Shown here piece after piece: positions 43,898 to 53,937 of a stretch of 64,000 bases of DNA. Each line of letters opens with the position of its first letter. Position 1 is the first letter of the stretch. Source of the DNA: Cladopsammia gracilis (Eukaryota > Cnidaria > Anthozoa > Scleractinia > Dendrophylliidae). The stretch is taken from positions 352,501-416,500 of the forward strand of contig JAJGOT010000494.1 of the NCBI GenBank assembly GCA_022457155.1, given 5' to 3'. A program made the translations under genes and the position numbers. Under the pieces are notes generated by a model, which was not told where the DNA came from, ran no database searches, and saw only the letters and a program-made list of their open reading frames with translations.

Positions 43898-43920
43898 CTC
43901 AAGCAGTTTAAGGCCTGGGT

Positions 43921-45278
43921 CATGCAAGAAAAACTGGTTCACAGACAAAAACAGCTACATCTAAGCAATAGTTGACCCGATAACCACGAAATTTTCGTGG
44001 ACGATAGTTCTCCAAGCGCCTTTTTGCCTTAACGTAACAACGTTCACCAAGATGGTCACGTGTCCGGTCACGTGATCAAAACAACATTCGTTTAGCTTTT
44101 ACCGGAATTGGTGAGTTATAACAAGATTCATTGCAAACAAACGAATAAAATCAATATTCATTAAAAAGTTCTAGCCCTCTACGTTTGGAATGAGTGTCCC
44201 TCATTGCTTTCAAGAAAGATGTAAGAGAAAAAAGAGCCGTATAACAACTTTTATAAACTTAATGACATTTCATTCTTTATCAAATCGATTACACGGTTCA
44301 TTCCAAACGTGAGTATTTAGTTCTACAACGTCTTCTTCGATTTTGATAATAATAATTGCCTCAAATAGAAAATTGGGCGCCAACTTGAGCATTTTATTGC
44401 CCCCTATTTGAACGAAGAAAGAAGCCGCCATCTTGTGGCTTTTCGTTCCATAGAGTAGAGCCTGGACCTAACTATTAAATGATACCGCTGAGTAGGTTGG
44501 ATTAGAACGAGGCTCAAAACAAATATGGCGGACAGAAGAAGAAACGAAGAAATCAATTATAAAATGATCAAGTCGTTATCTGTTACAGATTTTTTTGGGC
44601 TCCTACAATTGTCACGGGTTCTTAAATGGTTAATGGTTTTTTACTTGATGTATTTTGTAATTTTCACGCGCTCCTTGTCCGTGATTAAGGCTCATTTAAT
44701 GACGCTATTAAAAAGTAATATATAATAGAGCGTTTGGCAAGAGTTTCTTTTAATTTCGTATCAAGAGTGTAATTTATGATCACTCCATAATGAAAACGCC
44801 GTTCTTAGCCGGGTCCTAAATTAAGGCTAAATGCACTTACGGCCAGCTAGCAATGTTTAGCACAGGAGAGGGTGGGGAAGAGAGTGACAATGGGGCTGAT
44901 GCTGAGCAGTTGACAATTTTTCCATGTCCACAGTGAGAATTTCGAAGATCGACAATCGTTTAGTATGAACTTTACTGAGATAGAAATCAGCCAAGCTTGG
45001 AGAAGGATTGTGAAAACAAAGCTCTTCAAAAAGTCCGATTCCCCCCCCCCCCCCCCCCAATCCCCCCTCCACATCTTCCAAGCCGCATTGCCCTCCCCTC
45101 CCAACTTGACAACGATGGAATTTACATGCGCAGTTTACGCTCATTTCCCGAGGTTAATCCCAAGGTCAGTTGGAGAAAACGTTTTGTGGGGGTAAAACAG
45201 AACTGTAAAAAAAAAGACAAAAGAAAGACAAACAAAAAACAAAAAAAAAAAAACAAAAAAAAAAATGTAATATTAACA
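43921..45278 (+). promoter_or_regulatory. 5' region of the transposon gene
   Basis: It should contain the promoter and perhaps a leader exon. An ATG at 44,525 opens a 66-codon frame (MADRRRNEEINYK...) that has no obvious splice donor joining it to the gene. A poly-C run lies at 45,041-45,059 and an A-rich run at 45,208-45,265. No clear TATA box seen. Confidence 0.3.
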
Positions 45279-45459
45279 ATGGGCATTGACTGTGGATTTG
45301 CAAGAGTTTATTTGTGGGATACAAAATCCCTGGCCAAAAAAAATGTCAGAAAAAAGGAAGATGAAACGGAAAGGGCATACAAATGTCGACTGCTTGATGA
45401 AAGGTATCGGCTGTACATCGACAGATTTAAGAAATATCCACGTTTACATGTCAGCAAAG
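45279..45459 (+). CDS. Transposon gene, exon 1 (start uncertain)
   Basis: Frame MGIDCGFARV...KKYPRLHVSK ends at donor AAAG|GTAAGT (45,460) in phase 1. I took the ATG after the A-rich run; the frame is open further upstream to 44,997, so an earlier start or another exon is possible. Lys/Arg-rich. Confidence 0.6.
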
Positions 45460-45588
45460 GTAAGTTTTTCTAAATTAAATTTTAAACAGCTTTTGAAAAT
45501 TAATAACAAATGAAGTTGTTTTATACTTACAGCATTAATTAATTAATTAATTAACAGCATTAATTAAAAAATTGCTTTTAATTAACAG

Positions 45589-46431
45589 GTCTTTTTCTAA
45601 AGAAATACAAAGCAATTGATCAAAAAATTGCAAACTGGGCACCGCCAAAAAAAAAGCAGCTCTATATGACAACATTTTCCGCAACACAATGGCAGCGGAC
45701 TGCTGAGGGAAGAAAAACACTTCACATCTTGAGTGACTGCAAGTGCTGTGCTGTAATGAATCCAATAGAGAGCAGTCTCTTCACAAAAAACACAGGCTGT
45801 GTGTTGCCAAGCAGAGAACCATTTACTGATTTAAAACAGAAAGCAAAAGAACTAACAGGTGCCACAAGAATTTTCAAGCCATCCCAAAAAGAAATTAAGA
45901 ACATTGGTACAGCCATTTATGGTGAATTCAACTCTGTATGCAAAGAAAAACTCGGTAAGTCCTTTGGAGACGTGTTGGCAGCAGTCCCTGAGTCTGGTTT
46001 ACAAAAAGCACCATCACCTGCAGAAGCAAAGATAAAAAACCGTGAAAAAAAACGAAAATTCAAAAAACAGGTGGAAAATTCATGGAAAACAAATGATGTT
46101 AATCTTCACTTGGCCCAGCGAACATCCTATGCAACACGTAAAAGTCAGAGATTAGAGGAATGTTTTGAGAGCAAGGAAGAAGCTAATGAGAGGTCCAAAA
46201 GAGCTGCAAAGCGACAAAAAAGGGCCCATGGTCCTGCTTCAGTGGATGGAAACCTCCAGCAGCTCATGCAAGATGTAACGCAGTGGAAAACTGTAAACTG
46301 GTCCAAGAAAGCTAAAGAATACCAAATAAGAAAAAAAGGAGAAAGCATCCCACCGCCAAATGCCGGGCAACTGTTGAAAGAATATCTTCAGTCTCAAGGA
46401 GTGGACACTGAAGCATTTGACCAACAGAAGA
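45589..46431 (+). CDS. Transposon gene, exon 2
   Basis: Acceptor ttaattaacag|GT, then in-frame GLFLKKYKAIDQKIANWAPP... to donor AAGA|GTAAGT (46,432), phase 1 in and out. It encodes about 281 residues, mostly hydrophilic and basic, with CKCCAVM and RSKRAAKRQKRA, the latter a possible nuclear localisation signal (inference). The phases on both sides fit the neighbouring exons exactly. Confidence 0.8.
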
Positions 46432-51643: not shown

Positions 51644-52939
51644 ATTCAAGTCTGTCAATTAGTTGCTTACCTTAAGCATTTTGCTTGACTGGAAGAGAGC
51701 TGTCCTGTCAAACTGTTTTTCTTCTGCTGGATAAAGAAAAAGATGTACATGTAAATAACAAGAACAATGGAGTTTTACTGCAAGTTTTCAATTTAATGGC
51801 TTTGAGTTTATATACTAGACCATACACTCTTGTACAAATGCACATGTTTCTTTTTTAAAAGAACAAATATACATTGTATGTACTGTATTGAGGATTTTGC
51901 AAACAAAAACAAGATGCAACTAAACTTACATGTATGTGACAGTTTAAATGTTGTGACTAGCATTGTGAACTTTAAACATGATTGTCATATACAACATGTC
52001 ATTTTTGACTGTAAATCAATCTACTTTTTGGTTAAAAAAGTGGAAAGTAAAAAAAGCCAGTTTAAAATTGTCTTAAGCAGAATAGTGTGCATATGTACAC
52101 ACAGATATTGAACAGTCAGATGAGTTGTTAGGGATCAAACTACTGTATTGTTGAAATTACATTACATATTTTCAGGGGGGAAGGGCAGTTTAACTGACAA
52201 ATAAGATTTTGCTGATTTTGATTGGTTGAGATCTGATGCAGTGAGAAATAGATGAAACCACCTTCAATGGTTTAAATTTTGCAAAAATTACAAAAATGCA
52301 ACTTACATGCACTTTTATATACTAAGGAAAAAATGTGTTTACTGCATGCTGCTAAATTTTTGTCACGAATATTTTTTCAATGTGGCTGATTAGCTCACTT
52401 CTGCAATTTTATGCACTTGGGATGGTGGTGTAGTGGATTAGAATCTATCTTGTTATGTGAGCATGTAAACAGTATATGGCAGTTTGACTTACAGTAGTGG
52501 TAAACTCTTCCACTACATGTAGGTTCCATGGTAGTCAGCAAAAATATTCTTAACCCACGTGGCTGTCATGCACAGCCTTCAATATCATCTTGTCCAATCT
52601 TCTTTGGCCAATTTTTCATCAATTTCACAACTTAAAGGGAAAAAAAAGTTTTAAAGGCTCTGAGGTTTTATGCTCAAAGAGTTGCTTTTGCAGAATTTAG
52701 TCTAGTGGAAAGGCCTTTTTGTGATTAAGGTCTTGTACCACTGATGCTTTAGCAAATTTGACATCTTTTTGGTTGCCAGTTTATAAACGAATTGCATCGT
52801 TGTTACAGCTTTTGTTGAAATAAATTACTGGTATGAGCCCAAATTGCCAACGGGCCATGACCATTTTAAGCAATGATGTGGGTGTAGAAATGGTAAAAAA
52901 TAAGCCCTTCTTTTATCAAATAAGTACACATTGCAACAT
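51644..52939. other. 3' non-coding part of the 10-kb transposon
   Basis: AT-rich, no supported gene. A 93-codon frame at 51,830-52,111 has no recognisable feature. Confidence 0.45.
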
Positions 52940-53209
52940 ACTGTAAAATTCCAAAAATAAGCCCCCTCCGTGTATAAGCCCCTCAGATTCTTAACACAAA
53001 AAAGCCTTCTATAAAATGCCCCTCTGAATATAAGTCCCTGGGGGCTTATATTTGGGAATTGCAGACACAAATTTCCCTCCAATTATAAGCCCAGCTGATT
53101 TTTTAAATGCAAATTTCCCTCCTATAATAAGCCCCTACCAAACACAAGCTCCTCAAAAAGGTGCGTTGAAAAATATAAGCCCCTGGGCCTATTTTCGGAA
53201 TTTTACCGT
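52940..53209. mobile_element. MITE with TAAAATTCCgAAAATAAGCCC ends
   Basis: Ends ACTGTAAAATTCC and the inverse GGAATTTTACCGTG. The interior has several TATAAGCCCC motifs in both orientations. Nested in the transposon. Confidence 0.65.
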
Positions 53210-53914
53210 GACAAAGTTGAAATTCAGAAAGAGGTCTTGTAATTCATTCAACCACAAAACATCCTTGGTGCATGTACATTAACACATTAAAGCTGAATGA
53301 TTATAATAAACTGAATTTCTTAATTAATTATTTAATAAACCTTCATCTGTTTGATACCTTTCCTATGGTTTCTGGTCCCAAAAATGGCAATTTGTAGAAC
53401 ATAAAATGCCCACAATATTAATCATATCACAATGCGCAGACGACCGTTAGAATATGGGTTCAAACAAGACATTTAAATAACTATCATTTCCTAAAAGCGT
53501 AGACGATAAATGTGGCCGTGGTATGGCATCGAATTTCTTCTGACACAAATGGAAAGTACCTATCACAAAATAAAACGTTTTCATAGTTCAAACAAAATAA
53601 ACCACAATATATGGCCGTACTCAAAATACACAATTGGGTTGTCTGAGACTTCAGGTATGCACGCGTCAGCTTCCTTCGCAGCAAAGGCTGATCTCGAAAT
53701 TAAGACAAAAAGAGCACTCACCTCTGCTGCAGATCACACATGTTTAACGTAAACGTCATCATCTAAAAAGTTCTTGGTCCAAAAATCCATCTTGTCTTTC
53801 TGAAAAGCTAAACGCTCTGGTCAAAACTTCGAACACGCCACGAGGTCACGCCGCCATTTTGTTTACTTCGATTGCGACCTTCGAGCTCTGCTGGGGGTCT
53901 AAATCCAAGGTCAA
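53210..53914. other. Right subterminal region of the 10-kb transposon
   Basis: No supported gene. A minus-strand ATG near 53,790 opens only 17 codons before a stop, followed by a GTGAGT donor-like site, so a non-coding leader is imaginable but unsupported. The inverse TIR occupies 53,915-53,937. Confidence 0.4.
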
Positions 53915-53937
53915 ACCCAGGCCTTAAACTGCTTGAG

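What the first reader, a model, noticed from the sequence alone, without database searches (positions are those of the whole stretch)
43898..53937. A complete 10-kb transposon with a four-exon gene, bounded by an internal empty-site comparison
The 23-bp perfect TIRs, the TG duplication and the exact unoccupied site in unit 1 (12,848-12,864) define the element to the base. It is unusually large for a cut-and-paste element and its gene has three introns. The termini do not fit any superfamily I can name with confidence.
Basis: seen in the sequence. Interest (0 to 1): 0.88.

Follow-up and report, generated by a model that had tools for sequence, protein, structure and literature searches.

The report
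RAG1-fold jumping gene in coral-like DNA
This is an intact-looking 10-kb jumping gene from a coral-like animal whose cutting enzyme is predicted to share the fold of the vertebrate antibody-gene recombinase RAG1, yet it matches no named transposon family that could be tested here.

The parts
43898..53937 (+). whole element, 10,040 bp
   Evidence: perfect 23-bp TIRs plus flanking TG and an empty site in unit 1
43898..43920 (+). left terminal inverted repeat CTCAAGCAGTTTAAGGCCTGGGT
53915..53937 (-). right terminal inverted repeat (reverse complement of the left)
43896..43897 (.). TG, left copy of the 2-bp target site duplication
53938..53939 (.). TG, right copy of the 2-bp target site duplication
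12852..12853 (.). single TG of the unoccupied site in unit 1
45279..45459 (+). exon 1, from ATG (MGIDCGFARV...)
   Evidence: GT donor; the CGFxRV motif also opens amphioxus homologues
45589..46431 (+). exon 2: N-terminal region with a conserved H-x4-C-x2-C and a conserved segment with NxGQ
   Evidence: 36% identity over 144 aa to amphioxus P0070, E 4e-14 for the single comparison; alignment A3
47399..49531 (+). exon 3: DDE catalytic core with RAG1-like predicted fold and SAP domain (710 aa from 47,401, P0041)
48307..48402 (+). SAP domain (residues 303-334 of P0041)
   Evidence: Pfam PF02037, E 4.1e-5, 23.5 bits against a cut-off of 23.9; hit in 35 of 40 members of A1, best E 7.8e-11
50023..50645 (+). 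exon 4: C-terminal region and stop codon
   Evidence: 46% identity over 112 aa to the C-terminus of Actinostola P0004, ending at the last residue of both
44089..44100 (+). subterminal 12-mer CGTTTAGCTTTT, 192 bp from the left end; an inverted copy lies 124 bp from the right end (53,803-53,814)
   Evidence: possible transposase site, function inferred only

Best explanation
The block is a complete, probably young cut-and-paste DNA transposon. Its single gene encodes a 1,259-aa DDE transposase of the CACTA-Mirage-Chapaev-Transib/RAG1 (CMCT) clade, in a lineage of its own that carries a SAP domain inserted between the C(2)C zinc motif and the LH motif. Shown: ends, empty site, open gene, conserved catalytic and zinc-type residues, RAG1-like predicted fold. 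Inferred: the transposase pairs the two 23-bp ends, cuts them with the active site D142/D240/E517 (probably through a hairpin on one side of the cut, as RAG1 and Transib do) and joins them to a TG target with a 2-bp stagger, leaving TG on both sides. The N-terminal region and the SAP domain probably contact end or target DNA.
Against: No transposase model passed its cut-off in the Pfam rows shown (in one search, 25 of 44 families are shown), and the profile found no RAG1 or Transib sequence in the PDB at E <= 10. Transposase_21 (CACTA) appears only in 2 of 40 members, best E 0.068. Foldseek TM-scores to RAG1 are modest (0.40-0.42 by query, 0.46-0.52 by target), and only residues 1-558 of 710 are covered in those alignments. 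No CACTA, Mirage, Chapaev or Plavaka structure is in the rows shown, so the fold cannot say which CMCT branch is nearest. The ends are CT..AG, not the CA..TG that most CMCT elements share. Only one insertion was seen. Transposition was not tested.
Confidence: 0.85

Rival explanations
1. The element belongs to an already named CMC superfamily, such as a divergent EnSpm/CACTA (animal 'TRC') or Plavaka branch that Repbase may already hold, and only looks separate because Repbase could not be searched.
For: 2-bp TSDs are reported for animal TRC elements (7 of 14 SmTRC1 copies, and one element each in Tribolium and Aedes; PMC1636069 sections 5-6) and for PlavakaA (PMC12730594 passage). Weak Transposase_21 hits in 2 of 40 members; the one in P0019, at residues 228-319, spans the second D at 243.
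Against: No scanned member passes the Transposase_21 gathering score. The ends CTC..GAG differ from CAC (EnSpm), CCC (TRC) and TGT..ACA (PlavakaA). No paper listed by the three searches that used the term 'SAP domain' held it (20 of 273, 15 of 24 and 12 of 52 matching papers were listed).
Confidence: 0.35
2. It is a Transib or RAG-like (RAGL) transposon proper.
For: The best fold matches are RAG1, BbRAGL and HzTransib, with the active-site and zinc residues in matching order.
Against: Transib/RAGL ends begin CAC and TSDs are 5 bp (PMC7204232 passages); here CTC and 2 bp. No further ORF of more than 133 aa (stop to stop) lies in the element outside the reading frames of the four exons, so no unspliced RAG2-like gene; a spliced one was not modelled. 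No Pfam RAG1 match is in the rows shown.
Confidence: 0.07
3. The element was present before the segmental duplication and left unit 1 by precise excision or deletion, or the two units are alleles placed in tandem by the assembler and the insertion is a polymorphism.
For: Unit 1 retains one clean TG, as precise excision would also leave. The units differ at several other large indels, as alleles of a heterozygous animal can.
Against: Insertion after duplication needs a single event, whereas cut-and-paste excision often leaves footprints (general knowledge). Neither alternative changes what the element is.
Confidence: 0.2

Closest known systems
RAG1 / ProtoRAG (BbRAGL) / Transib
   Same: predicted fold over about 390-430 aligned residues, DDE order, ZnC2 and ZnH2 pairs, active-site His
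   Different: 2-bp not 5-bp TSD, ends CTC not CAC, no RAG2-like ORF seen, SAP domain inserted, no sequence similarity detected
Animal TRC / CACTA-related transposons (SmTRC1 and others)
   Same: 2-bp direct repeats at the ends of the described copies (7 of 14 for SmTRC1), 4.5-9.2 kb, spliced transcripts, CMC-type transposase
   Different: TRC ends begin CCC; this transposase does not pass Transposase_21
Plavaka (PlavakaA)
   Same: 2-bp TSD, C(2)C and H(3-4)H motifs
   Different: ends TGT..ACA; described from fungi in the passages read
Chapaev
   Same: C(2)C, LH and H(4)H motifs in animal transposons
   Different: generally 3-4 bp TSD and CAC..GTG ends; the one described in the passage read has a 556-aa, two-exon transposase

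Membership tests
[quoted passage not shown]
   D142 and D240 in 26 of 26 ungapped rows (1 gapped), E517 in 27 of 27; model and RAG1 match. By conservation and prediction, not by assay
[quoted passage not shown]
   C258/C261, H496/H501 and H372 in 27 of 27 rows; criterion from PMC12730594 passages
[quoted passage not shown]
   TG, one insertion
[quoted passage not shown]
   CT..AG
EnSpm/CACTA | CAC ends | tested here: not met
   CTC
EnSpm/CACTA | Transposase_21 (PF02992) above the gathering score | tested here: not met
   best E 0.068, 2 of 40 members; 12.5 bits against 28.6 in P0019
Transib / RAGL | CAC ends and 5-bp TSD | tested here: not met
   CTC ends, 2-bp TSD; criterion from PMC7204232 passages
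Transib / RAGL | RAG1-like fold | tested here: met
Chapaev | 3-4 bp TSD, CAC..GTG ends | tested here: not met
   criterion from PMC4079192 passages
PlavakaA | TGT..ACA ends | tested here: not met
   criterion from PMC12730594
PlavakaA | 2-bp TSD | tested here: met
   one insertion
Animal TRC | CCC ends | tested here: not met
   CTC; criterion suggested from three species in PMC1636069 section 6
Animal TRC | transposase inside the TRC clade | not testable with these tools
   no TRC, CACTA or Repbase sequences reachable
KDZ, Academ, ISL2EU | sequence membership and their TSD and end rules | not tested
   no sequences of these families were at hand; no Pfam transposase model passed in the rows shown

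The most novel reading that the evidence does not exclude
A distinct animal transposon lineage of superfamily rank, present in Cnidaria, Mollusca and amphioxus, whose transposase has the RAG1/Transib fold and all eight active-site and zinc residues but cuts with a 2-bp stagger at CTC ends and carries a SAP domain grafted into the RNase H insertion. It would be an independent branch of the RAG fold, living beside RAG-like transposons in the same animal groups.
Probability: 0.4. Interest if true: 0.68.

Novelty: new variant of a known kind. Interest (0 to 1): 0.52.

Why it matters
RAG1 descends from a transposon, and its deep relatives are still being mapped. An intact-looking, probably recent element whose transposase is predicted to share the RAG1 fold, but with another stagger, other ends and an inserted SAP domain, gives a natural comparison for which parts of the fold set the 5-bp (RAG/Transib) or 2-bp stagger and end recognition. 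It also gives a likely function to a family of cnidarian and amphioxus 'uncharacterized proteins' in which Pfam shows at most a SAP domain. For coral genomics it supplies an exact, bounded element for repeat libraries.

Tried and rejected
Host gene or domestication: rejected, since perfect TIRs with an empty site bound the gene and relatives are multi-copy (P0057 stands for 200 member sequences; 16 of 24 rows are named Branchiostoma).

Plain RAGL or Transib: rejected on ends and TSD (see membership test). DUF6589, on P0033, looked like a link to another family, but the hit lies on residues 14-128 of an Exaiptasia gene model, N-terminal to the part that resembles this family (from about residue 410), so I take it as a fused gene prediction; P0033 was left out of alignments A1, A2 and A3.

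Coral CMITEs (PMC2872659, passages) were checked and set aside: TTAA TSDs and piggyBac-like ends.

A profile of the family against PDB sequences found SAP proteins and weak unrelated hits only (7 sequences at E <= 10): the RAG1 link is structural, not visible by sequence. The viral structure library gave nothing at E <= 0.001. Families not listed in the fold searches are not excluded by them. The N-terminal model (exon 2) came out poor (pLDDT 69, pTM 0.28) and was not used for a fold search; Pfam gave nothing for exon 2 alone.

An exact match to the first 18 nt of the TIR in one IMG/VR contig (L001) is about what chance gives in a collection of that size (my estimate) and was not pursued; no relative of the transposase was found in that collection.

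Tree of 27 members (catalytic region): the window protein pairs with unnamed P0002 (100/100) inside a group of 8 (100/100) that holds two Actinostola proteins and four other unnamed ones; the deepest fork is weak (52/84), so no claim is made on the order of phyla.

Full report
OBSERVATION. The block 43,898-53,937 (10,040 bp) begins with CTCAAGCAGTTTAAGGCCTGGGT and ends with its exact reverse complement; TG precedes and follows it. The duplicated site in unit 1 reads GGCTCGACTG-GATTTTTT with one TG at 12,852-12,853. The two flanks align between units at 97.1% and 96.6%; the left alignment stops at the base before the TIR, the right one runs 7 bases into the TIR by chance resemblance. No other match to the TIR with up to 5 substitutions was found in the 64 kb. 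The reading with symmetric ends is TIR plus a TG duplication; since this is one insertion, a chance TG (about 1 in 16) is not excluded.

GENE. Four exons (45,279-45,459; 45,589-46,431; 47,399-49,531; 50,023-50,645) with GT-AG introns encode 1,259 aa without a stop. Relatives support the model: exon 1's CGFxRV opens amphioxus proteins; exon 2 matches P0070 at E 4e-14; exon 3 is 59% identical over 659 aa to Actinostola P0004; exon 4 matches the C-terminus of P0004 to its last residue (46% over 112 aa). The 3.3 kb downstream of the gene hold no ORF over 101 aa between stops and some short inverted repeats that may be nested insertions.

FAMILY. Three searches of 5.8 billion proteins listed 40 relatives (E <= 0.001), 62 (profile, E <= 10) and 24 (amphioxus query, E <= 10), 90 distinct proteins in all; the first two scored only the candidates sharing most words. 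Named sources: Actinostola and Exaiptasia (sea anemones), Oculina patagonica (stony coral), several Branchiostoma species and Argopecten irradians (scallop); the lineages of Oculina, Actinostola and Argopecten were looked up. Many of the others are unnamed. Pfam shows SAP in 35 of 40 members of A1 (in the window's protein at 22.7-23.5 bits, just under the cut-off of 23.9; 39.9 in P0004) and, weakly, Transposase_21 in 2 of 40, best E 0.068. One search counts 44 families at E <= 10, of which 25 are shown, so such hits are near the noise; but the one in P0019 (228-319) covers the second D (243) and C(2)C. Scans of 8 and 9 proteins (P0019 and P0044 among them) gave SAP in several, the same P0019 hit, weak unrelated families, and no other transposase model.

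ACTIVE SITE. A2 holds the window protein and 26 of the 90 relatives, chosen for length and diversity. Where the window protein has Cys or His, the only columns unvaried in every ungapped row are C258, C261, H372, H496 and H501; unvaried Asp/Glu columns include D142, D240, E369 and E517. Kojima 2025 (PMC12730594; passages) marks the CMCT clade by D, D, E plus 2C and 3H, with C(2)C and H(3-4)H between second D and E. A Chapaev paper (PMC4079192; passages) names the motifs C(2)C, LH and H(4)H: here CVGC, EPLH and HSAVHH. Mouse RAG1 has D600, D708, C727, C730, H937, H942, E962 (PMC4914335, passages) and active-site H795 (PMC7204232, passages). Spacings are close except between C(2)C and the single His (111 here, 65 in RAG1), which is where the SAP domain (303-334) sits; the pairing of H372 with H795 is inferred from order.

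MECHANISM (inferred). Cut-and-paste by a DDE transposase that pairs the 23-bp ends, probably with hairpin chemistry as in RAG and Transib (hairpin-forming complexes of both are among the PDB titles), and a 2-bp stagger. SAP and the N-terminal region are candidate DNA-binding parts. A 12-mer shared by both subterminal regions is a candidate internal binding site; by my estimate (uniform bases) a shared 12-mer in two 500-bp stretches has about a 1.5% chance, more in AT-rich DNA.

COMPARISON. Size and introns are ordinary for CACTA-type elements (PMC1636069 sections 5-6; PMC4158355 passages). 2-bp TSDs are reported for animal TRC and PlavakaA, but with CCC and TGT ends. CAC-ended superfamilies (EnSpm, Chapaev, Transib/RAGL) are not met. 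I therefore file it in the CMCT clade but in no named superfamily. Whether Repbase already lists it could not be tested. In print: the three paper searches that used 'SAP domain' listed 20 of 273, 15 of 24 and 12 of 52 matching papers, none of which held that term; searches on CMC, Plavaka, KDZ, EnSpm, Chapaev and structure-based classification were seen as listings, and no title or abstract start in them described this lineage.

AGE. Perfect TIRs and an open gene suggest a young, possibly active copy. Insertion after duplication is the simplest reading, but excision from unit 1 or misassembled alleles are not excluded.

LIMITS. Genome-wide copies, flanks and haplotypes were unreachable (genome search did not complete). 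The host is inferred to be an anthozoan, probably a stony coral, from the nearest named protein relatives only.

Noticed in passing
6806-7939, 14612-15712, 40598-41701, 56799-58160: ORFs of a repeated gene array; SOCS box (PF07525) found in the three that were scanned (6806-7939 and 40598-41701 strong, 56799-58160 weak), while 14612-15712 was not scanned but overlaps stretches that align to the others. Much of the unit is duplicated at about 94-99% in blocks.
   Followed up: partly
32479-33603 (and inverted at 23003-24110): A second, about 1.1-kb block is present in unit 2 and missing from unit 1 between 5012 and 5017; an inverted copy, 92-99% identical in three pieces, lies at 23003-24110.
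   Followed up: partly
30324-31576 (-): Fragments of a reverse transcriptase (RVT_1, below its cut-off) and a GIY-YIG nuclease side by side, as in a Penelope-like element.
   Followed up: no
24244-25279: Minisatellite of about 44-nt units containing GAGTATCCCACCGGTGAAGACTG.
   Followed up: no
52943-53209 and 50756-51643: Inverted repeats inside the element's non-coding 3' part, possibly nested MITE-like insertions; no clear duplication seen beside the second.
   Followed up: partly
34350-40231 and 8323-11033: Further large blocks present in one unit and not at the corresponding place of the other (5.9 kb in unit 2; 2.7 kb in unit 1), boundaries not resolved.
   Followed up: no
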